Shown: positions 950-63,944 of the stretch, in pieces | Numbering within the stretch: the first letter of the stretch is position 1 | Layout: each line of letters starts with the position of its first letter | Source of the DNA: an uncultured Pelagibacteraceae bacterium | GTDB taxonomy: Bacteria; Pseudomonadota; Alphaproteobacteria; Pelagibacterales; Pelagibacteraceae | Assembly (NCBI GenBank): GCA_902562205.1 | Contig: CACESO010000003.1 | Span: 1 to 64,000 of the forward strand | Direction of reading: 5' to 3' | Length of the DNA stretch: 64,000 nucleotides | The notes under the pieces: model-generated | Seen by the model: only the letters and a program-made list of their open reading frames with translations | Told to the model about the DNA's origin: nothing | Database searches by the model: none | Translations under genes and position numbers: made by a program

Positions 950-3820
950 TTAAGCTGCATCTTCTTTAAATTCGTCAATACTTGGACAAGTGCAGAATAT
1001 ATTTTTATCTCCGTAAACATTATCAACTCTAGCAACAGGAGGCCAAAATTTATTTGTTTTTAAATATTTAGATGGATAAGCTGCTTCTTCTCTTGAGTAT
1101 TTGTGTTTCCATTCGTCAGAAGACAGTTCAAGATCAGTATGAGGTGCGTTCTTGATTGGATTATCTACTTTATCAAACTCGCTGGACTTAATCTTATCGA
1201 TTTCTTTTTTAATCTTAATTAAAGTTTCACAAAATCTGTCTATTTCTGTAAGGCTTTCACTTTCAGTTGGTTCTATCATCATTGTGCCAGCAACAGGCCA
1301 GGACATAGTTGGTGCATGAAAACCATAATCAATTAATCTTTTCGCAATATCTTCCTCCGTTATTCCTGTTTCTGATTTAATTTTTCTAATATCAATAATA
1401 CATTCGTGTGCCACATTGCCATTTGACCCTTTGTACAAAATCGGAAAGTGATCTTTTAATCTATGAGCTATATAATTTGCATTCAATATTGCAACTTGGG
1501 TAGCAAGCTTTAATCCAGTTGATCCCATCATTTTAATATACATCCAAGAAATTGATAAAATGCTTGAACTTCCCCAAGGGGCAGCAGAAACTGCTCCAAT
1601 TCCAGAAGTTGGCCCACAATCTTTTATTACTGGGTGGTTGGGCAAGTAAACTTGTAAATGTCTTTTACAAGCAATTGGTCCCATTCCAGGTCCTCCCCCA
1701 CCATGAGGAATACAAAACGTTTTATGTAAATTAATATGACAAACGTCTGGACCAAAATTTCCTGGTTTAGCAATTCCCACTAATGCATTTAGATTTGCAC
1801 CATCCATATAAACCTGACCACCATGTTTATGAACTAACTCACAAATATCTGATATTTTTTCTTCGAAAACTCCATGAGTGGATGGGTAAGTTACCATTAA
1901 TGCCCCAAGGTTTTCAGAATGTTGCTCTGCTTTTTTCTTTAAGTCATCGAAATCAACATTTCCTTCTTTATCACAATTAACAACAACAACTTTCATTCCA
2001 GTCATTTGTGCACTTGCCGGATTAGTACCGTGTGCTGAACTTGGAATTAAACATATATTTCTATTGGCCTCATCCCTATCTAAATGATACTTTCGTATAA
2101 CCATTAATCCCGCATATTCACCTTGAGCACCTGCATTAGGTTGAAGAGAAACACCCGAGAAACCAGTTATGGAACGCAACCAATTTTTTAGATCAGTAAA
2201 TAGATCTCTGAATCCCTCCATTTGTTCAATTGGGACAAATGGATGAGGTTCTGCAAACTCTTTCCATGAAATTGGGATCATCTCAGCGGCAGCATTTAGC
2301 TTCATTGTGCATGAACCAAGTGCAATCATTGTTCTATTCAATGCTATATCCTTATCTTCTAATCTTTTTAAGTATCTCAACATTTCAGTTTCAGAATGGT
2401 ATGAGTTGAAAACTGGATGTTCTAAATATTTTGAGGTTCTCAATAAGTTTTTTGGAAGATTAGGTAAACTTACTGAAGGATCCTCTTTTTTAATTGATTC
2501 TGCTGCGTTAAAAATTTTTAACAGTTGATTTACTCTATAAACATTCTTTCTTTCATCAAAAGAAACTGCAAGCATTTCAGAATTTACTTTACGTATATTA
2601 ACTTTTTGATTTAAAGCATTTTTATAAATTTGATCAGTTTTTTCTTTAGTAATGATTGTGACAGTATCAAAAAAATAATTAGAATAAAGTTCATATCCAG
2701 ACTGTTTTATTTTATCGGCAAAACTTTTTGCTAATTGTGAGACTCTTTCAGAAATATTCTTAATTCCATCTGGGCCATGATAAATAGAATAAGCTGCTGA
2801 TACAATTGCTAATAGAGCTTGGGCGGTGCAAATGTTGCTTGTCGCCTTGTCTCTTCTGATATGTTGCTCTCTAGTTTGCAAGGACAATCTGTATGCCTTG
2901 TTGCCGTGTCTATCAACTGACACACCGACAATTCTTCCTGGCATTGATCTTTTGTACTCATCTTTTGTTGCAAAAAAAGCTGCGTGTGGACCTCCATATC
3001 CCATTGGGATACCAAATCTTTGTGAGCTTCCAACTGCTATGTCAGCACCAAGTTCTCTTGGTGTTTTTAATTTTGCTAATGCTAGCAAATCACAAGCTAA
3101 TACAGACTTACCATTCTTTTTATGAATTTTGCTAATTGCTTCACTTGGGTCTTTAATATCTCCTAAAGTTCCAGGATATTGTAAAATTCCACAAACTAAA
3201 TCCTCTTTTAACTGGTCTAGAACCTCATCTTCTTTACCAACCAATACTTTTAAACCCAACGGTTCAGCTCTAGTTTGAATTACATTTATTGTTTGAGGGT
3301 GACAATCCTCAGATACAAAAACTAAATTACTATCTTTTTTGTTCAATCTGTGACTTAAGCCCATAGCCTCCGCTGCTGCTGTACCCTCATCTAATAAAGA
3401 GGCATTAGCTATATCCATTCCAGTAAAATCAACAATCATTTGTTGAAAATTTAATAACATCTCAAGTCTTCCTTGAGCTACTTCTGGCTGATAAGGTGTA
3501 TATGAAGTATACCAACCTGGATTTTCTAATATATTTCTTAAAATTACATAAGGTGTATAAGTTCCATAATAACCCATACCAATAAAATTTGAGTAAACTT
3601 GGTTTTTTTTTGATATTGCTCTTAATTTTCTCAAAGCTTCATATTCTGAATTTGATTCACCAATGTTTAATTCACCTCTAAACTTTATTTTTTCTGGCAC
3701 TGTGCTGTCAATTAAATCATCTAGCGATTTATAATTTAATTCTTTTAACATTTTTGATTGATCTTCTTTAGAAGGTCCAATGTGTCTCTTTAAAAAATCT
3801 TTTTCTGAATTTGGTAACAT
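950..3820 (-). CDS. gcvP: Glycine dehydrogenase (decarboxylating), P protein
   Basis: The PLP-dependent P protein decarboxylates glycine and passes the aminomethyl group to lipoyl-GcvH. At 956 aa it has the usual single-chain length (about 950-960), combining the two halves that are separate subunits in some bacteria. The N-terminus (KRHIGPS at 11-17) is typical, and the PLP lysine sits in an H-K-T-F-C-I-P-H-G-G-G-G block near residue 700. Its ATG overlaps the gcvH stop by one base (TAATG), indicating translational coupling. It is the last of the three gcv genes behind the riboswitch. The lipoamide dehydrogenase (L protein) is not in this window. Confidence 0.97.
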   Translation of the reverse strand: MLPNSEKDFLKRHIGPSKEDQSKMLKELNYKSLDDLIDSTVPEKIKFRGELNIGESNSEYEALRKLRAISKKNQVYSNFIGMGYYGTYTPYVILRNILENPGWYTSYTPYQPEVAQGRLEMLLNFQQMIVDFTGMDIANASLLDEGTAAAEAMGLSHRLNKKDSNLVFVSEDCHPQTINVIQTRAEPLGLKVLVGKEDEVLDQLKEDLVCGILQYPGTLGDIKDPSEAISKIHKKNGKSVLACDLLALAKLKTPRELGADIAVGSSQRFGIPMGYGGPHAAFFATKDEYKRSMPGRIVGVSVDRHGNKAYRLSLQTREQHIRRDKATSNICTAQALLAIVSAAYSIYHGPDGIKNISERVSQLAKSFADKIKQSGYELYSNYFFDTVTIITKEKTDQIYKNALNQKVNIRKVNSEMLAVSFDERKNVYRVNQLLKIFNAAESIKKEDPSVSLPNLPKNLLRTSKYLEHPVFNSYHSETEMLRYLKRLEDKDIALNRTMIALGSCTMKLNAAAEMIPISWKEFAEPHPFVPIEQMEGFRDLFTDLKNWLRSITGFSGVSLQPNAGAQGEYAGLMVIRKYHLDRDEANRNICLIPSSAHGTNPASAQMTGMKVVVVNCDKEGNVDFDDLKKKAEQHSENLGALMVTYPSTHGVFEEKISDICELVHKHGGQVYMDGANLNALVGIAKPGNFGPDVCHINLHKTFCIPHGGGGPGMGPIACKRHLQVYLPNHPVIKDCGPTSGIGAVSAAPWGSSSILSISWMYIKMMGSTGLKLATQVAILNANYIAHRLKDHFPILYKGSNGNVAHECIIDIRKIKSETGITEEDIAKRLIDYGFHAPTMSWPVAGTMMIEPTESESLTEIDRFCETLIKIKKEIDKIKSSEFDKVDNPIKNAPHTDLELSSDEWKHKYSREEAAYPSKYLKTNKFWPPVARVDNVYGDKNIFCTCPSIDEFKEDAA

Positions 3821-5296: not shown

Positions 5297-5455
5297 ATTA
5301 ACTCTCTAACCCCCTCTGTCGTGGTGCCTGAGAGATTTTAGCTCCTTCGGCGAGAATTTGTCTCTTTCCAGAGTTAATATGTACGGTCCTTTTGCCTGAG
5401 AGTTTCCGGGGTGGTTGCTCCTTCGGCGCTACTTAATGTAGTCTCTCCCGTATCA
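5297..5455 (-). promoter_or_regulatory. Tandem glycine riboswitch upstream of gcvT
   Basis: Read on the minus strand, two consecutive aptamers each carry the family signatures GCCGAAGGAGC and CTCTCAGGCA, roughly 5380-5455 (aptamer I) and 5297-5378 (aptamer II). P1 of aptamer I is TACGG paired with CCGTA. P1 of aptamer II is a 9-bp helix between 5370-5378 and 5297-5305, and its 3' strand ends at the base before the gcvT AUG. Glycine riboswitches of this class are known before gcv genes in many bacteria, including SAR11. I saw no terminator between the aptamers and gcvT, so translational control is more likely than attenuation. Confidence 0.95.
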
Positions 5456-5486
5456 GATTATATTAGCATATTTTTGATAATCGTCA

Positions 5487-15540: not shown

Positions 15541-15628
15541 GAGTGTAGAGGCTTTTTTGAGGGATAGTCCTAAAAACCGGGAGCTAAAGATGGCTAGATA
15601 GGACTATCATGTTTAATATATCACACTC
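15541..15628. ncRNA. Possible structured RNA or cis-element between proC-like and the TIGR03643-type gene
   Basis: The 189-bp divergent spacer holds a perfect 10-bp stem, GATAGTCCTA (15563-15572) with TAGGACTATC (15599-15608), around a 26-nt loop that is G/C-richer than its surroundings (CCGGGAGC, GATGGCTAG). A second, outer pairing GAGTGT (15541-15546) with ACACTC (15623-15628) could close a larger domain. It ends 45 bp before the plus-strand gene at 15674, so it could be a 5' leader element, a small RNA or an operator. No terminal U-run follows the stem. I do not recognise a named RNA family. Confidence 0.35.
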
Positions 15629-36514: not shown

Positions 36515-36551
36515 GAATTTTATTGAATCTTTATGTATAACTTTTATATTA

Positions 36552-36815
36552 ATAGTGTTGGTTTTCCAACTATGACGATAAACGAATTTCGTAATAAACA
36601 TTACGGACGTGGGGGCAGTACCCACCACCTCCACCATTTACAACTTATGGGGGTGAACTAGGATCGACGGATGTCTAAAGGCTATTTTTTCGTTCGGAAT
36701 TGTTCCACCGTAACGGGCTATTTATAATTGCAAATGATAAATTTGCTCTTGCTGCTTAATTAATTTATTAGTTAAGTAACGGGGTTTTGGGGCACCTGGC
36801 AACAGAACGCCCCCT
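36552..36815 (+). ncRNA. ssrA: Two-piece (circularly permuted) tmRNA
   Basis: The acceptor piece comes first and ends in CCACCTCCACCA at 36636. It has a T-arm GTGGG/CCCAC with loop GGCAGTA. After a 12-nt spacer (36637-36648) the coding piece starts with GGGGGTGAACTAGGATCGAC (36649 on). GGGGGTG pairs with CACCTCC in 7 bp and places G-U at the third pair, the alanine identity element. The tag frame 36730-36759 encodes A-N-D-K-F-A-L-A-A and stop, giving (A)ANDKFALAA after tRNA-like charging. A hairpin with a GCAA loop (36789-36813) ends the coding piece. This gene order is known for alphaproteobacterial tmRNA. The 5' end of the acceptor piece is approximate. Confidence 0.93.
36789..36813 (+). 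repeat. tmRNA coding-piece terminal hairpin, copy A
   Basis: GGGGC (36789-36793) pairs with GCCCC (36809-36813), and CTG-GCAA-CAG forms an inner stem with a GNRA loop. The core GGCACCTGGCAACAGAACGC recurs 444 bp downstream as a decayed copy B. Confidence 0.7.
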
Positions 36816-36831
36816 ATGTAATATACTGAAT

Positions 36832-37220
36832 ATGAAAATTAAAAATATTTTTAGAAAATTAGTTTTAATTGAACTGGCTTTGGCTATATCAATTTTTATA
36901 TCTATTTTTTTTCAGAGCCAAGAAGTTATCAACTTTAATGAAAATTATCAAAAATCTATAAGTGAGACTTTTGATATAATAGCTTTTTTTGTTGTTTTAG
37001 TAGGCTATCCTGTGGTTTTCTATTTGCTATATAATTTTAAATCCTTTGGAAACAATTATATTTAATCTTAACTACATTCGGTTTGGTATTTTCTATGTTT
37101 TCGGGACCAGTTGCTACTGATCCATTGCTTTATATTATTGATATATTAGGTTGTGCAACTACAGGTGCTATACTTGTATTATTATATTTTAGTTCTATAA
37201 GTAAAGAATTTGATAAATAA
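36832..37220 (+). pseudogene. Small membrane protein ORF broken by a frameshift
   Basis: The first frame (ATG at 36832, 77 codons, stop 37063-37065) encodes two hydrophobic helices. A second frame, shifted by -1, is open from 37041 to the TAA at 37218-37220 and continues with two more helices (T-F-G-L-V-F-S-M-F-S-G-P, then G-A-I-L-V-L-L-Y-F). Joined near 37041-37062 they give about 129 aa with four helices. An A/T-rich slippage or indel is the likely cause. Programmed -1 frameshifting or two separate small genes are alternatives. I recognise no family. It follows the tmRNA by 16 bp. Confidence 0.55.
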
Positions 37221-56802: not shown

Positions 56803-58110
56803 TCATTTTTTCCTATTAATACCAATTTTTCTTATCTGAGAATTGAAATATCTTCCTCTTTCCTCAAAATTTTTGAAATTGTCAAAAGAAGCTGAAGCAG
56901 GACTAAAAAGAATAATTTTTTGCTTTAATTTCTGTTCTTTTTTAAGGTCAACCTTAATTTTCTTTATTGCGGAAATCATATTATTAAACTTTTGATAATG
57001 AACTTTATCCTTAAGTCTATTTGCGAAAAAATCAGCATTTTTTCCAAATATATAGGCTCTTAAATTAAAACAATATTTTTTACTCAAAGTAAATTTATCT
57101 CCTTTTTTTGGCAATCCTCCTAAAATCCAGAAAGTTTTCTTCTTGGTGTCTATAAGGTCTTGCGTTGAGGAAAATGAAGTCGATTTTGAATCATTTATCA
57201 CTTTAATCTTTTTATTATTAATCACAATTTCATTTCTAAATCTTAAAGCTTTAAATTTATTTAAAGTAGGTAAAATCTTTTTCAAATCAATTTTTAAAAA
57301 ATCGCAAATATTAAAAATAAAGATAAGATTTTTTCGATTTACACTGTTATTAAGGTAATTATTTTTAATTAATTTTTGAAACTTTAAATAAATTTTCTCA
57401 TCTACTCTTAAAACTTTTGAATTAATTTTTTTTTTATTTAAGATTTTATTAATAATTTTATTTTTATTTTCTATAAAAGCATGAGAACTTTTATTTTGCA
57501 TTGAGATAAGTTTAATTTTACTTTTGACATAATTCTTGAAATTGCCATGTCTTTCTAAGTGATCTATTGAAACATTTAAAATTGCTGCCAAATTAGTTTT
57601 ATAAAATTTGCTATATTCGATTTGATAAGAAGAAGCCTCAACTACAAATAATGTTTTTTTTGAAAAATGATAGTTTGATAAGATTGATTTTCCGATATTG
57701 CCTACTAATTTTGTGTGAATTCTTTGAGATTTAAGAACTTGATATAAAAGTTTGCAGGTTGTTGATTTTCCATTAGTTCCTGTAATTGTAATAAAAAAAT
57801 TTTTTGGAAAACTTTTATAAAACACATCCAAATCAGAGATAATCTTTTCCTTATTTCTTACAACTTCATTTGATAATAAGCATTTTCTATAATTTACACC
57901 AGGGCTTAATAAAATATAGTCAAAGTTGCTTACTCTATCACTGTCTCTAATAAACTTTTTGTTACGAGGAAGATTTGTTAAAGATAAATTATCGTCAAAC
58001 ACTTTTAAATTATTTTTTTTTTTCAAAAAGTTAAAAGCTGATTTGCCAGTTTTACCATATCCATAAATTAGAATTTTTTTATTCTGAAAGAATATCTTTG
58101 TAGATTTCAT
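56803..58110 (-). CDS. murD: UDP-N-acetylmuramoylalanine--D-glutamate ligase
   Basis: 435 aa from the ATG at 58110, which overlaps the mraY stop by 4 bp. The longer frame from 58164 is rejected, as it would extend into mraY. Y-G-Y-G-K-T-G-K-S (near 16) is the Rossmann loop, and I-T-G-T-N-G-K-S-T-T (near 107) the P-loop. It adds D-Glu to the stem peptide. It is divergent and Lys/Asn-rich relative to MurC. Confidence 0.93.
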   Translation of the reverse strand: MKSTKIFFQNKKILIYGYGKTGKSAFNFLKKKNNLKVFDDNLSLTNLPRNKKFIRDSDRVSNFDYILLSPGVNYRKCLLSNEVVRNKEKIISDLDVFYKSFPKNFFITITGTNGKSTTCKLLYQVLKSQRIHTKLVGNIGKSILSNYHFSKKTLFVVEASSYQIEYSKFYKTNLAAILNVSIDHLERHGNFKNYVKSKIKLISMQNKSSHAFIENKNKIINKILNKKKINSKVLRVDEKIYLKFQKLIKNNYLNNSVNRKNLIFIFNICDFLKIDLKKILPTLNKFKALRFRNEIVINNKKIKVINDSKSTSFSSTQDLIDTKKKTFWILGGLPKKGDKFTLSKKYCFNLRAYIFGKNADFFANRLKDKVHYQKFNNMISAIKKIKVDLKKEQKLKQKIILFSPASASFDNFKNFEERGRYFNSQIRKIGINRKK

Positions 58111-59192
58111 CTTAGTTTTAAAGTAGCTAAACCAATCATCGCCAAAATAAGAGATATAATCCAAAATCTTATGACTATTGTAGACTCAGCCCAACCTTTT
58201 TTTTCAAAGTGATGGTGAATTGGCGCCATCATAAAAATTCTTTTGCCTGTCAGTTTAAATGAAACAACTTGCACAATTACTGAAATTGCTTCTAAAACAA
58301 ATAGTCCACCAGTAATAGCTAACACTATCTCATGTTTTGTTGCTACCCCAACTGCACCTAAAGACCCGCCTAAAGCCAACGATCCTGTATCTCCCATAAA
58401 TATTTTAGCAGGTGGCGCATTAAACCATAAAAAACCAATTGATGCTCCGATGATTGCTCCACAAAAAACTGCAGCTTCTCCAACACCCTCTATATAAGGA
58501 ATTAATAAATAGTCTGCAAAAATTACATTTCCTGATACATAGCTTATAAAACCAAAACAGCCCGCAACAAGTATAACAGGAACGGTGGCTAATCCATCCA
58601 AACCATCAGTTAGATTTACTGCATTAGAGGATCCAACAATAACAAACAAATAAAAAGGTATAAAAAACCAACCTAAGTTAATTACTAAATTTTTAAAAAA
58701 TGGAAAATACAAATTAGTTTTAATATCAGAGTCTATAAATTTATAAAAAATAATTAATGAAATTAGACAAAGAAAAATTTGAATTGATATTTTTAATCTT
58801 GAAGAAATCCCATTTGAGTTGTTATTTTTAATTTTTTTGTAATCATCGAATGCCCCTAAAATTCCAAAGGATAAAGTGATGAATATCAATAACCAATTAT
58901 ATGGATTTAATAAATCAGCCCACAAAAAAACACCTGTGAATAGTCCTATTAATATTAAAACTCCACCCATAGTGGGTGTTCCAATTTTTTTGATCAAATG
59001 ATCTTCTGGCCCATCAGAACGAATAGGATTTGTAATTTGTTTTGATGAAAAAAAGTTTATAAACTTATCTCCTATTAAAAAAACTATGATCATTGCAGTA
59101 ATCACAGCTAGTCCCGTTCTCACAGTTAAGAAATTGAAAAAATTCAGGAACGAATATGTATCCGAATAGCTTGTAAGTATATTATATAACAT
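58107..59192 (-). CDS. mraY: Phospho-N-acetylmuramoyl-pentapeptide transferase (lipid I synthase)
   Basis: 361 aa, ten helices. Signatures are G-T-P-T-M-G-G (near 71), A-F-D-D-Y-K-K (near 114-120, catalytic Asp pair), N-L-T-D-G-L-D-G-L-A (near 193) and the M-A-P-I-H-H-H-F-E loop near 323. It transfers the UDP-MurNAc-pentapeptide to undecaprenyl phosphate. It begins 2 bp after the murE-murF fusion gene. Confidence 0.97.
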   Translation of the reverse strand: MLYNILTSYSDTYSFLNFFNFLTVRTGLAVITAMIIVFLIGDKFINFFSSKQITNPIRSDGPEDHLIKKIGTPTMGGVLILIGLFTGVFLWADLLNPYNWLLIFITLSFGILGAFDDYKKIKNNNSNGISSRLKISIQIFLCLISLIIFYKFIDSDIKTNLYFPFFKNLVINLGWFFIPFYLFVIVGSSNAVNLTDGLDGLATVPVILVAGCFGFISYVSGNVIFADYLLIPYIEGVGEAAVFCGAIIGASIGFLWFNAPPAKIFMGDTGSLALGGSLGAVGVATKHEIVLAITGGLFVLEAISVIVQVVSFKLTGKRIFMMAPIHHHFEKKGWAESTIVIRFWIISLILAMIGLATLKLR

Positions 59193-59194
59193 TT

Positions 59195-62017
59195 TTACAA
59201 ATTTTTTATTATTTTATTTAATCCTGTTGAATTAGATCCTTTTATCATTAAAAAACTGTTATTAGGTAATTGTTTTTTTATCAAATTCAAAATCTCTAAT
59301 TTATTGTTCAGTATTTTACCTCTCATTTGTGGTTTTAATTTGTTAAATGTATGTTTTGTATAATTACCATAAACATAAGTTTTATTTATGTCAGATTTAT
59401 TAATATATTTCGCAATTTTGATATGAAGTTTTTTTGAAAATTTTCCTAACTCAAGCATATTTCCAATCAAAATAAATTTTTTATTATTACCCTTATATTT
59501 TTTGTCAAATCTTTCTAATGCAAATTTAAATGAAAGTGGATTTGAATTATAACTTTCGTCAATAATAGTTAAATTTTTTTTTCCTTTTTTATACTTAATC
59601 ATTGAGCCTCTACTCTGGGAAATTTTGAAATTTAAAAATAAATTTTTAGGTAATGAATCTATATTAAAGTAATAAGTAATAATACTTAGTGTAGATAAAA
59701 TATTTTCTTTGAAATCTATTAGGTAATTTGGAATTAAAAAAAATTTTATTTCACCCTTAATCAAAAATTTACATAAAAATCTGTTTTTTATTTTTTTTTC
59801 CCCAAGGTAAACAATATCAGCTAATTTACTTTTTTTACTGAAAGTGATTATATTTAAATTTCTCAACTTTGCTTTTGAAATAAAATAATTACAGTATTTA
59901 TCGTCTTTATTTATAATCATTACTCCTGACGGAAAAATGTTGTTTATTATTTCACTCTTAGCCTTAGCAATCTCATCAAGACTCTTGAAGTTTTTGATAT
60001 GAGCGTATGAGATATTTGTAATTAAACCAAGATTAGGTCTTATTAGCTTTGTTAAAGTATCTATTTCTCCTTTTTTATCCATTCCTACTTCTAAAACTGA
60101 GAACTTTGTTGATTGTGGTGAATTTATAATACTTAAAGGCACACCGTATTTATTGTTAAATGATTTTTTTGAATAATATGTTTTATCTAATTTATTGAGA
60201 CAGAATCCAGTTAAGTCTTTAACTGATGTTTTTCCTGCAGATCCTGTTATTGCAATATAATTACTGTCTAAAGACTTTCTATAAACTGAGCTTAATTTAT
60301 TAAGTTTCTCGAGAGGATTTTTACTAAATATATTTCTAGAATTTTTAAATCTTTTATTTGTAATTGCTAAAATTGCATTATTTTTTATCGCCTCAATTCC
60401 AAATTTATTTCCATCAAATTTCTGACCCTTCACCCCAAAAAATACTGATTTTTTTTTAACTTTTTTAGAGTTTAAAGACACTGAGTTTATTATAGTTCTT
60501 TTGTTTAAAATCGTATTATTGAAAGTTTCAGTTAAGATATTTGTTTTTACTGAATTCGAAAACAAGTTGTTCTTTTTTCTTATAGCTTTAATAATCTCTA
60601 ATTTATCCGAGAAAAAAAATCTTTTTTTATATTCTTGATAATTTTCATGTCCCTTTCCAGCAACAATTAAAACATCACCTGAATTTAATTCACTGACAGC
60701 TTTTGAAATAGCGTCAGCCCGTGAGGAAATTTCAACATATTTTTTTTTCTTAATTTTCCTCTTTATCTGGTCTCTTATTACTTTAGAGTTTTCAAACCTT
60801 GGATTGTCGTCAGTTAAATATATTTTATCACAATACTTGTTTGCAATACCTCCCATTAAAGGTCTCTTACTTTTATCTCTATCCCCTCCACATCCAAATA
60901 CTAACGATATTTTACTTAAAGGATAATCTTCTTTTATACTTGATATGACTGTTTTTAAAGCATCTGGAGTATGTGCATAGTCAAGTATTACTCTTGATTT
61001 ATTCTTCAATTTGCCAATCTGCTCTAGTCTTCCGTTAACAGGTTTAATTTTACTAATATTCCTAAGAACAGTATCAATCTTTATGCCTGATAAATATGCA
61101 GCCAAAACTGCAAAAAGTAAATTTTTTATCTGAATGCTGCCAATTAGATAAGAATTGAATGAATAATCTTTCTTTAAAAGACTAAAATTGACTCTTTTTT
61201 TATCGTTTATTTTTTGTATTTTTTTCAAATTAATGAAAGAATTCTCGCTACCTATTTTATAAGTCCTCAATTTCTTTTTTTTGGAAATCTTTTTAAGTTC
61301 TTTTTCTTGAGATATTCCATTTTCAAAAATTATATTTCCTTTATTAGGCAACAATTTATTAAAAAGAATAAGTTTAGAATTCAAATAATCTTTGAATGTT
61401 TTATGATAATCAAGATGATCTCTTGAAAGGTTTGTAAACAATGCAGTTTTATAGTTTATTCCATCCAATCTATGTTGTTTTAAACCATGACTTGATGCTT
61501 CTATAATTACATTATCAATATTTAAATTTTTTAATTTCTGTAAAATTTGATGCATTTTAACGGGATCTATTGTGGTATTATTTGTTTTTAATTTTGTTTT
61601 TTTTGATAAAACGCCTAAAGTTCCGATGGCAGCAGCCTTTTTTTTGTTTAAAGACAATATTTGATAAAAAAAATTCGCTATTGAGGTTTTGCCGTTTGTA
61701 CCGGTTATTGCGATAATATTTTTAGGTTTTTTTTTATAAAAATTACTTGCTGCCTCTGCTAATAGTTTTCTTGGATTTTTACTTTTAATAAATAAAATTT
61801 TTTCTTTATTAAATCCTTCAAAATTTAGATTTGAAATAATTATTTTTGAGCCATTTCTTATAGCGTCTTTAATATAATTATTTCCGTTTAATTTATTTCC
61901 TTGGATAGAAAAAAAAATATCGTTTGTTTTACAATCTTTACTGTTAAATCTAATATTATTAAATCTTATAGATTTATAAGCTGGTTTAATATTTTTAATT
62001 AATTTGCCCAATAACAT
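59195..62017 (-). CDS. murEF: MurE-MurF fusion: UDP-MurNAc-tripeptide synthetase and D-Ala-D-Ala adding enzyme
   Basis: 940 aa in one frame. Residues about 1-478 are MurE, with P-loop I-T-G-T-N-G-K-T (about 103-111) and the D-D-N-P-R-F motif near 402, where DNPR indicates meso-diaminopimelate as the added amino acid. Residues about 485-940 are MurF, with its own N-terminal domain (G-V-K-G-Q-K-F-D-G), second P-loop I-T-G-S-A-G-K-T (about 588-596), Y-N-S-N-P and L-G-N-M-L-E-L-G blocks. The linker near 478-490 is short. In most bacteria these are adjacent separate genes. Both catalytic halves appear intact. Confidence 0.94.
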   Translation of the reverse strand: MLLGKLIKNIKPAYKSIRFNNIRFNSKDCKTNDIFFSIQGNKLNGNNYIKDAIRNGSKIIISNLNFEGFNKEKILFIKSKNPRKLLAEAASNFYKKKPKNIIAITGTNGKTSIANFFYQILSLNKKKAAAIGTLGVLSKKTKLKTNNTTIDPVKMHQILQKLKNLNIDNVIIEASSHGLKQHRLDGINYKTALFTNLSRDHLDYHKTFKDYLNSKLILFNKLLPNKGNIIFENGISQEKELKKISKKKKLRTYKIGSENSFINLKKIQKINDKKRVNFSLLKKDYSFNSYLIGSIQIKNLLFAVLAAYLSGIKIDTVLRNISKIKPVNGRLEQIGKLKNKSRVILDYAHTPDALKTVISSIKEDYPLSKISLVFGCGGDRDKSKRPLMGGIANKYCDKIYLTDDNPRFENSKVIRDQIKRKIKKKKYVEISSRADAISKAVSELNSGDVLIVAGKGHENYQEYKKRFFFSDKLEIIKAIRKKNNLFSNSVKTNILTETFNNTILNKRTIINSVSLNSKKVKKKSVFFGVKGQKFDGNKFGIEAIKNNAILAITNKRFKNSRNIFSKNPLEKLNKLSSVYRKSLDSNYIAITGSAGKTSVKDLTGFCLNKLDKTYYSKKSFNNKYGVPLSIINSPQSTKFSVLEVGMDKKGEIDTLTKLIRPNLGLITNISYAHIKNFKSLDEIAKAKSEIINNIFPSGVMIINKDDKYCNYFISKAKLRNLNIITFSKKSKLADIVYLGEKKIKNRFLCKFLIKGEIKFFLIPNYLIDFKENILSTLSIITYYFNIDSLPKNLFLNFKISQSRGSMIKYKKGKKNLTIIDESYNSNPLSFKFALERFDKKYKGNNKKFILIGNMLELGKFSKKLHIKIAKYINKSDINKTYVYGNYTKHTFNKLKPQMRGKILNNKLEILNLIKKQLPNNSFLMIKGSNSTGLNKIIKNL

Positions 62018-62029
62018 TTTTTTAAATTC

Positions 62030-63685
62030 TTAGTATTTTGTGGCTAAAATAGGTCCTATTTTTTCAATTATTTTTGCTGCTACTTCTACTGAAGTCCATC
62101 CAGCGGTATTGAAGGGTGTGCCCGTAAATGAACCTGGTTTATTTCGATATTTATAAACATAGTCTTTGGATAATTTAGTATCTTCCAACATAACAATAAA
62201 AACATACTTTGGTTCATTCATTGGAAAAATTGATGCAAAGGTATTTATTTTTTTTTTAGTATATTTTCCATTTTCAACAATAAGTGCAGTGCCTGTTTTT
62301 CCCCCAACATTATATCCTTTCACATCAGCCAAACTTGCTGTTCCCTCAGAAACGACTCTTCTTAAAATTTTATTCATTTTCAAACTTACACCTTTGCTTA
62401 AAACTCTTCTTTCTTTTGTATAACCAATATTTTTATCTTTGATTAAAGTTGGTGTAATATCATATCCACCATTTGATATTATCGCATAGCCTTTAGCAAG
62501 CTGTATGAGTGTAGTTGTAATACCATGACCAAAAGAGACAGTTAATAGTTTACACTTTCCCCAATTAAAAGGTATAGGTTTTCCAATTTCTGGAATATCA
62601 AATTTAATATCGCCTAGAATACCAATTCTAATTAAAAAATTTTTAATCTTATCGACACCTATTTTTTGACCTATCTTTACAGACCCTATATTTCCAGAAT
62701 TAATCAAGATCTCTTCAACGGATAAATTTTGTGATAAATCTTCATCATATTCAGAGATTGTTCTGCCGCCACAATTAATTTTTTTTTCAAGATTATTGAA
62801 CATATCTTTTGGTTCAATTAATTTTTCATCAAATCCTGCTGCTATTGTAAATGTCTTAAAAACTGATCCAAATTCATAGATTCCTTTAGTTGCCCTATTA
62901 ATATACTTTTTATCAGAAATATTTTTTCGCTGATTAATGTCAAAGTCAGGTAGAGATACCAACGATAATATCTCTCCACTATTGATATTCATTAAAATGC
63001 TTGCACTTCCAACATTTTTGAAAATTTTTTCAGAATTAAGAAGTTCTTGTCTAATCAAAAATTGAATTTCTTTGTCCAAAGTCATAGTTAAAGGCTTAGT
63101 ATTTGTTTTAAGATAATTATCAAAACTTTTTTCAATTCCTGAGACTCCAAAATTTTCATCATCTATTTGCCCCACAGTATGTGAAAATAAATTGTTATCT
63201 GGATAAATCCTTGTCACTTTTGGTTCAAGAACTAAAGACTTCTCACCTAATAATTTAATTTCTTCAGATTTTTGGGGAGTAAGCTTTTTTTTCAAATAAA
63301 AAAATTTATTCTTCTCAATATTATTTTCAATTTTTTCAAAGTCCAATTCAGGAAACGAATACTTTAGTTTTAACAAAAATTTTTTTTTGTCATTAATTAA
63401 TTTTGGTTTAACTCCAACATTATAAGTAATTACTGATTTACCAATAAAACGACCATTAATATCAATAATATCAGCACGATAATTTTTAATTTTGTTTGCC
63501 ATTTGATATGTTTGTATTGGAGTACTTGATCCTAAATATGCAATTTTAGTTAAATAAAGCAAAAATATAAAAAGAATTAAAAAAAACAAGAATGAAACCC
63601 TATTAAAAGAAACTATCCTTTTTTTTTCAGAAAATTTAAATTCGTCGTTATTTTCAATTATATATAATCTTTTATTATTATTCAT
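62030..63685 (-). CDS. ftsI: Division transpeptidase PBP3 (FtsI)
   Basis: 551 aa from the ATG at 63685 (a TTG at 63694 is the only upstream alternative). TM helix at about 30-50, then the pedestal and transpeptidase domains. The SxxK motif is S-V-F-K in E-F-G-S-V-F-K-T (near 271), SxN is S-G-N near 328, and K-T-G is in G-G-K-T-G-T-A near 462. It crosslinks septal peptidoglycan with FtsW. It overlaps ftsL by 8 bp. Confidence 0.94.
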   Translation of the reverse strand: MNNNKRLYIIENNDEFKFSEKKRIVSFNRVSFLFFLILFIFLLYLTKIAYLGSSTPIQTYQMANKIKNYRADIIDINGRFIGKSVITYNVGVKPKLINDKKKFLLKLKYSFPELDFEKIENNIEKNKFFYLKKKLTPQKSEEIKLLGEKSLVLEPKVTRIYPDNNLFSHTVGQIDDENFGVSGIEKSFDNYLKTNTKPLTMTLDKEIQFLIRQELLNSEKIFKNVGSASILMNINSGEILSLVSLPDFDINQRKNISDKKYINRATKGIYEFGSVFKTFTIAAGFDEKLIEPKDMFNNLEKKINCGGRTISEYDEDLSQNLSVEEILINSGNIGSVKIGQKIGVDKIKNFLIRIGILGDIKFDIPEIGKPIPFNWGKCKLLTVSFGHGITTTLIQLAKGYAIISNGGYDITPTLIKDKNIGYTKERRVLSKGVSLKMNKILRRVVSEGTASLADVKGYNVGGKTGTALIVENGKYTKKKINTFASIFPMNEPKYVFIVMLEDTKLSKDYVYKYRNKPGSFTGTPFNTAGWTSVEVAAKIIEKIGPILATKY

Positions 63686-63944
63686 TAATTTCAAACTTTT
63701 TAATATCTTTTGGATTTAATGGAAAAAATTTGTCCTCAAATAATTTATCTTTTAATCCAATCAATCTTTCTGGGTTGCTTAGATAATCATTTTCTAGAAG
63801 CAAAAAATTCAATTTTTCCTCTAAAATTTTCACTTCTTCTTCGAGTATAAATACATTTTTTTCTAATTGCCTTGTGGATGATTTAACAATTGATGTTGCG
63901 ATGATTAGACCTACTATACAGAAAAAGATTATATATTTTTTCAT
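63678..63944 (-). CDS. ftsL: Cell division protein FtsL
   Basis: 88 aa. A short cytoplasmic start, one TM helix (about 3-20), then a periplasmic coiled coil (about 28-60: L-E-K-N-V-F-I-L-E-E-E-V-K-I-L-E-E-K-L) and a tail with N-P-E-R-L-I-G-L-K-D, which resembles the conserved end of FtsL-type proteins. Size and position between rsmH and ftsI match. Its ATG overlaps the preceding stop (ATGA). Confidence 0.85.
   Translation of the reverse strand: MKKYIIFFCIVGLIIATSIVKSSTRQLEKNVFILEEEVKILEEKLNFLLLENDYLSNPERLIGLKDKLFEDKFFPLNPKDIKKFEINE

What the first reader, a model, noticed from the sequence alone, without database searches (positions are those of the whole stretch)
59195..62017. MurE and MurF fused in one 940-aa polypeptide
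Both ligases appear complete, each with its own P-loop, joined by a short linker. Fusion would channel UDP-MurNAc-tripeptide from step to step and fix 1:1 stoichiometry. In most proteobacteria the two are separate adjacent genes. DNPR in the MurE half points to meso-DAP.
Basis: partly seen in the sequence, partly recalled or inferred. Interest (0 to 1): 0.55.

Follow-up and report, generated by a model that had tools for sequence, protein, structure and literature searches.

The report
Fused MurE–MurF cell-wall enzyme in SAR11
In this ocean bacterium two consecutive cell-wall enzymes, MurE and MurF, are made as one 940-residue protein; the fusion is real and shared by one branch of the SAR11 group, but the same kind of fusion is already known in other bacteria.

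Summary
Window 59195-62017 (-) is one open frame of 940 codons holding a complete MurE and a complete MurF, in the ftsI-murEF-mraY-murD-ftsW-murG-murC-murB-ddl cluster. It is no missed stop or frameshift: 149 of 150 listed matches in the same genus run through the junction without a stop, and the junction codons are under purifying selection. The assembly holds no second MurE or MurF.

The fusion is found in one clade of Pelagibacteraceae (genera g1, g8, g9, g10), not in its sister clade or the other family, and arose once on an RpoB tree. Unfused relatives show likely precursors: ATGA-overlapping genes, or genes in one frame parted only by TAA before ATG. The junction is no added domain, only MurE's last helix, about six residues and MurF's first helix.

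The kind is known: NCBIfam has a bifunctional model, and the Bordetella pertussis fusion has been purified, assayed and solved. There, coupling gave no rate advantage, so channelling is not supported. Meso-DAP specificity is supported. New, as far as my searches reach, are the SAR11 fusion, its dating and its in-frame precursors. Verdict: real, ordinary biochemistry, a new member of a known kind.

The parts
59195..62017 (-). murE-murF fusion gene, 940 codons plus stop
60569..62017 (-). MurE half (residues 1-483): UDP-MurNAc-L-Ala-D-Glu:meso-DAP ligase
   Evidence: TIGR01085 18-478; model aligns to E. coli MurE 1e8c_A over 1-481, Z 43.4, rmsd 2.3
60551..60568 (-). link between the last MurE helix (471-483) and the first MurF helix (490-499): residues 484-489
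   Evidence: secondary structure and pLDDT of the predicted model; purifying selection on residues 478-510
59195..60550 (-). MurF half (residues 490-940 and stop): D-Ala-D-Ala adding enzyme
   Evidence: TIGR01143 516-940; model aligns to A. baumannii MurF 4qf5_B over 489-940, Z 39.4, rmsd 3.2
61685..61702 (-). P-loop GTNGKT (106-111) of the MurE half
   Evidence: G106, T107, G109, K110 invariant in 51 rows, N108 nearly so
60227..60244 (-). P-loop GSAGKT (592-597) of the MurF half
   Evidence: G592, S593, G595, K596, T597 invariant in 51 rows
60797..60808 (-). DNPR (404-407), meso-DAP recognition motif
   Evidence: invariant in 51 rows; aligned with DNPR of E. coli MurE
62030..63694 (-). upstream neighbour, FtsI-type transpeptidase (12 bases between the genes)
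   Evidence: best family matches are penicillin-binding proteins, all below their cut-offs
58107..59192 (-). downstream neighbour mraY (2 bases between the genes)
   Evidence: TIGR00445, over cut-off

Best explanation
A genuine bifunctional MurE-MurF ligase, the only MurE and the only MurF found in its assembly. The N-terminal half adds meso-diaminopimelate to UDP-MurNAc-L-Ala-D-Glu; the C-terminal half adds D-Ala-D-Ala to the product (inferred from family, fold and conserved residues; not assayed). It arose once, on the stem of one Pelagibacteraceae clade, most simply when tandem genes lying in one frame lost the single stop between them (shown: tree, frame and length of the junction; inferred: that exact step). 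It then stayed fixed. The two sites probably work as independent active sites tied at a 1:1 ratio, without kinetic channelling, as in the Bordetella fusion. Streamlining of an already tight operon, or assembly with MurG/MraY, are the likeliest reasons for its retention (inference).
For: Open frame and two complete ligases. Only four Mur_ligase_M places in the whole assembly: the two halves, MurC and MurD. Predicted model: mean pLDDT 91.9, pTM 0.86; halves match solved MurE and MurF. 149 of 150 listed same-genus matches have no stop. RpoB tree: fused genomes one clade, 100/100; MurE+MurF gene tree agrees, SH-aLRT 99. All 9 genomes of the sister genera g5, g6, g7 in the sample have two genes; of 23 separate junctions read in the order, 13 are ATGA overlaps and 6 lie in one frame with one stop. 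GKGHE to MurF-motif distance is 180-195 nt in the fused loci measured and 146-185 nt in the separate ones, so little sequence was added. Met is depleted in the junction, 2 seen against 21.9 expected in 44 rows, so no ATG for a separate MurF is kept in 42 of 44. Coupled assay without advantage in the Bordetella fusion.
Against: No protein evidence. TTG at codon 485 and GTG at 513 are possible internal starts in the window. The AF2 model has an ordered junction and pTM 0.86, which may mean a defined arrangement of the halves rather than the flexible one of Bordetella, so absence of channelling cannot simply be carried over. Two fused-clade genomes (G220, G301) show the frame broken just after the junction, next to homopolymers; G290 is broken inside MurE and G023 near its start.
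Confidence: 0.87

Rival explanations
1. The fusion channels UDP-MurNAc-tripeptide from the MurE to the MurF site. The short, ordered junction of the SAR11 protein holds the two sites in a fixed relation.
For: Junction of about six residues between two helices, mean pLDDT 93, 91 and 80 for 481-490, 491-500 and 501-510, pTM 0.86; a review proposes channelling from such fusions (PMC4929429, passage).
Against: B. pertussis fusion: no increase in overall rate in the coupled assay, sites about 35 A apart. The model does not superpose as a whole on the solved fusion 8f5d (rmsd 24.1 over 727 residues), so the predicted arrangement is not the one solved there.
Confidence: 0.1
2. Assembly artefact: a missed stop or frameshift near codon 480 joins two genes.
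For: Many long A runs in this A+T-rich gene (15 runs of 7 or more).
Against: Same open frame in 149 of 150 listed matches of the genus, including single-contig genomes G012, G042, G043, and in g8, g9, g10 where read; dN/dS 0.13 across the junction.
Confidence: 0.01
3. One gene but two proteins: an internal start in the junction, or proteolysis, yields some free MurF or MurE.
For: Non-ATG codons TTG 485 and GTG 513; relatives make MurF from an ATG at about this place.
Against: Met is depleted in the junction (2 seen against 21.9 expected; the rows are related, so this is no formal test). Residue 485 is Leu in five of six close species and Val in one (codons there not checked). The model shows an ordered junction.
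Confidence: 0.07
4. The fusion came in by horizontal transfer from another fused lineage.
For: Fused ORFs exist in other alphaproteobacteria (10 genomes read in families f75, f92, f72, f107), Pararhizobium and Desulfobacterales.
Against: In the MurE+MurF tree the SAR11 fusions sit inside their own order, sister to the unfused genera; starred branches force at least 4 changes of state.
Confidence: 0.02

Closest known systems
Bordetella pertussis MurE-MurF (PMC6420597; PDB 8f5d, 'Architecture of the MurE-MurF ligase bacterial cell wall biosynthesis complex', title seen; that 8f5d is the Bordetella protein is recalled)
   Same: MurE then MurF in one chain of about 940-945 residues in the mur cluster; both activities of the Bordetella protein shown by assay
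   Different: Junction there about 20 residues and the molecule elongated and flexible; here about six residues between helices and predicted ordered; whole-chain superposition on 8f5d fails (rmsd 24.1)
NCBIfam PRK11929.1 / NF008896, bifunctional MurE/MurF
   Same: Matches over 20-939 with 844.9 bits, more than any single-enzyme model
   Different: Below the curated cut-off of 1023, as are all class members sampled (0 of 385 over it); so this model's name would not be applied by its cut-off
Separate MurE and MurF of the sister genera g5, g6, g7
   Same: Homologous genes in the same order, next to each other
   Different: Two genes: ATGA overlap, TAAAATG, or in one frame as TAA-ATG

Membership tests
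MurE (UDP-MurNAc-dipeptide:meso-DAP ligase) | curated family model over cut-off | tested here: met
   TIGR01085 486.9 bits against 257.3; PRK00139.1-2 567.1 against 476
MurE (UDP-MurNAc-dipeptide:meso-DAP ligase) | three-domain Mur ligase fold | tested here: met
   residues 1-481 on E. coli MurE 1e8c_A, Z 43.4, rmsd 2.3, 473 aligned
MurE (UDP-MurNAc-dipeptide:meso-DAP ligase) | DNPR motif for meso-DAP and a DAP supply | tested here: met
   DNPR 404-407, aligned with E. coli; DapF 238.3 bits, over cut-off. That DNPR marks meso-DAP is recalled
MurF (D-Ala-D-Ala adding enzyme) | curated family model over cut-off | tested here: met
   TIGR01143 410.3 bits against 288.6, positions 2-418 of 418
MurF (D-Ala-D-Ala adding enzyme) | MurF fold | tested here: met
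   residues 489-940 on 4qf5_B, Z 39.4, rmsd 3.2, 434 aligned
bifunctional MurE/MurF fusion | both complete ligases in one open frame, MurE first | tested here: met
bifunctional MurE/MurF fusion as curated in PRK11929.1 | score over the curated cut-off | tested here: not met
   844.9 against 1023; 1 of 398 genomes of the phylum passes it. So it is a MurE-MurF fusion, but not a member of PRK11929.1 as curated
bifunctional MurE/MurF fusion | both activities in one polypeptide | not testable with these tools
   needs protein

The most novel reading that the evidence does not exclude
The SAR11 fusion, unlike Bordetella's, joins the two ligases by an ordered helix-turn-helix of about six residues that fixes their relative position, giving a compact two-site enzyme with real transfer of the tripeptide or a shared control of domain closure; its retention throughout one SAR11 clade would then be selective and not a side effect of streamlining.
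Probability: 0.1. Interest if true: 0.5.

Novelty: new member of a known kind. Interest (0 to 1): 0.25.

Why it matters
It dates a gene fusion in an abundant marine group to one branch and shows living stages on either side of it: overlapping genes, genes in one frame with one stop between, one gene. It also warns annotators: the curated bifunctional model does not pass its cut-off on these proteins, so such genomes can be read as lacking MurF or MurE.

Tried and rejected
Artefact (missed stop, frameshift): rejected. A second MurE or MurF elsewhere in the genome: none at E 0.001, though the assembly is about 89% complete. Fission in the fused clade: the odd rows were fetched (22 genomes). Most are cut by contig ends (contig lengths, ORFs); G220 and G301 have the frame broken next to homopolymer runs just after the junction; G290 is broken inside MurE. 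None shows two genes parted by a stop in the junction. Horizontal transfer: rejected. An added linker domain: rejected, in which five fused or frame-broken loci and six separate ones gave no motif and were not measured. Distance between the active sites by comparison with 8f5d: the superposition fails and I had no coordinates.

Rows dropped: the careful RpoB tree used 24 of the 27 rows of the quick tree; G055, G305 and G115 were left out as short. 3 of 30 genomes gave no RpoB at the threshold. In one search, 28 of 297 genomes had no match; I take this as incompleteness (144 of 150 genomes of at least 90% completeness match) but did not check them. By my count of its table 181 genomes of the window's genus (own included) have a match, of which 150 matches are listed. 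Of g8, g9, g10 (34 genomes matched) 12 junctions were read (g8 7, g9 4, g10 1; 11 fused, one of them cut later in MurF, and G301 broken by a shift); 3 more g8 genomes (G211, G216, G218) were cut short of the junction and 19 were not read. Of the second family, 14 of 45 matched genomes had their junction read. One search listed only matches at 1e-170 or better, so weaker fusions could be missed.

Literature: no paper on a MurE-MurF fusion in SAR11 was found by the searches (open-licence full texts only). The paper behind 8f5d was not found; a guessed DOI led to an unrelated paper.

Full report
WHAT IS THERE. The ORF is as described: 59195-62017 on the minus strand, 940 aa, ATG start, 107.4 kDa. 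NCBIfam and Pfam find a complete MurE in residues 18-478 and a complete MurF in 516-940. The bifunctional model PRK11929.1 scores highest of all models (844.9 bits over 20-939) but stays below its cut-off of 1023. The gene lies 12 bases after an FtsI-type transpeptidase gene and 2 bases before mraY, followed by murD, ftsW, murG, murC, murB and ddl (the FtsI-type, FtsW and MurG matches are below their models' cut-offs). In the whole assembly only four Mur_ligase_M places were found: the two halves, MurC and MurD. Among the named loci the closest MurE by score is that of AG-435-I03, whose contig ends inside the gene (L118).

IS IT REAL. In the order-wide search 269 of 297 genomes match. The 150 listed matches are all from the window's genus; 149 cross from one half into the other without a stop, the exception (G290) being broken inside MurE. 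Among named contigs, 23 of 24 Pelagibacteraceae or Pelagibacterales loci are fused; the last is cut by its contig end. Across the junction (residues 467-515) dN/dS is 0.13 in six species at 90% identity or more, the same as in the halves (0.12, 0.14); in ten species at 64-71% identity to the window it is 0.29 against 0.15 and 0.18. So the junction is translated and constrained, less tightly than the domains.

ANATOMY. The predicted structure (51 sequences, mean pLDDT 91.9, pTM 0.86) has MurE's last helix at 471-483 and MurF's first helix at 490-499. The halves match solved MurE and MurF. The distance from MurE's GKGHE to MurF's first conserved motif is 180-195 nt in the fused loci that could be measured and 146-185 nt in the separate ones: the junction is MurE's own tail joined to MurF's own head. 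Met is nearly absent from it (2 seen, 21.9 expected from overall use, 44 related rows), as expected if MurF's start is no longer used. In the window, TTG 485 and GTG 513 remain as possible but unsupported starts.

ORIGIN. By group codes, genera g1, g8, g9 and g10 of the family are fused where read; g5, g6 and g7 of the same family (9 of 9 genomes in the sample) and the second family (where read) have two genes. On an RpoB tree the fused genomes are one clade with 100/100 support and the unfused genera g5, g6, g7 are its sister. The MurE+MurF tree agrees. Of 23 separate junctions read (9 in the family, 14 in the second family), 13 are ATGA overlaps, 6 lie in one frame with a single stop (TAA-ATG in three of four g7 genomes and in one of three g6; ATG six bases after the first base of the stop in two of three g3), 2 are TAAAATG, and 2 others have offsets of -5 and +11. 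A single change of the stop in a TAA-ATG arrangement would make a fusion of about the observed length. That this was the path is inference: the ancestor's junction is not known. From genome lengths that I recall, g5, g6 and g7 may hold HIMB114, Fonsibacter LSUCC0530 and IMCC9063; this is a lead, not a result.

HOW COMMON. In 385 genomes of the class, ten outside this order were read as fused, in four families (f75, f92, f72, f107); two more (G481, G366) are listed without a stop but were not read. Several with long matches are in fact two genes in one frame parted by a stop (L066, L074, L079, L080, L081, L083). In 398 genomes of the phylum four fused ORFs were read, the window's included. Starred branches of the gene tree force at least four changes of state, so the state has changed repeatedly. 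Desulfobacterales loci are fused too (L106, L113, L117, L128), in line with PMC6420597, which lists Desulfobulbus and Desulfobacula, there called archaea (passage).

HOW IT WORKS. Catalytic parts are conserved in both halves in 51 rows: in MurE the P-loop, K215, DNPR and GKGHE; in MurF the P-loop, K687, the NN..G, DESYN.NP and GDMLELG stretches with a few substitutions (their roles are recalled). The order of reactions follows from the families. For channelling the one direct test that I found is on the Bordetella fusion: the coupled assay showed no increase in rate and the authors found no apparent advantage (section 9 read). An earlier review had proposed channelling and had noted such fusions in proteobacteria and bacteroidetes (PMC4929429, passages). 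I therefore hold independent sites as likelier, with the caveat that the SAR11 junction is shorter and predicted to be ordered, and that the model does not superpose as a whole on 8f5d (rmsd 24.1 over 727 residues).

NOVELTY. The kind is known. I found no paper that reports it in SAR11. A SAR11 table lists a core 'Mur ligase MurE' cluster numbered between FtsI and MurD (PMC3686209, passage), which may be this gene under half its name.

Noticed in passing
L050 (G179, single contig of 1,284,727 bases), about 2884-3678: In this g7 genome the murF frame breaks off after about 265 codons and goes on in another frame: sequence error or a damaged essential gene.
   Followed up: no
L199 about 3055-3080; L051 about 3057-3080: Two fused genes are broken just after the junction next to homopolymer runs; such runs make this gene prone to false splits in assemblies.
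   Followed up: partly
window 36519-36817 (+): Alphaproteobacterial tmRNA (RF01849, 241.6 bits); ARAGORN calls it at 36541-36850 with tag ANDKFALAA.
   Followed up: no
window 5374-5460 (-) and 15545-15626 (-): Glycine riboswitch aptamer and an rhtB sRNA match.
   Followed up: no
L066, L074, L079, L080, L081, L083, L107: In other alphaproteobacteria murE and murF can lie in one frame with a single stop between them; whether any of these stops is read through is untested.
   Followed up: no
window 58107-58164: The murD ORF from its first TTG overlaps mraY by 58 bases; the true start is probably further in (TIGR01087 begins at residue 30).
   Followed up: no
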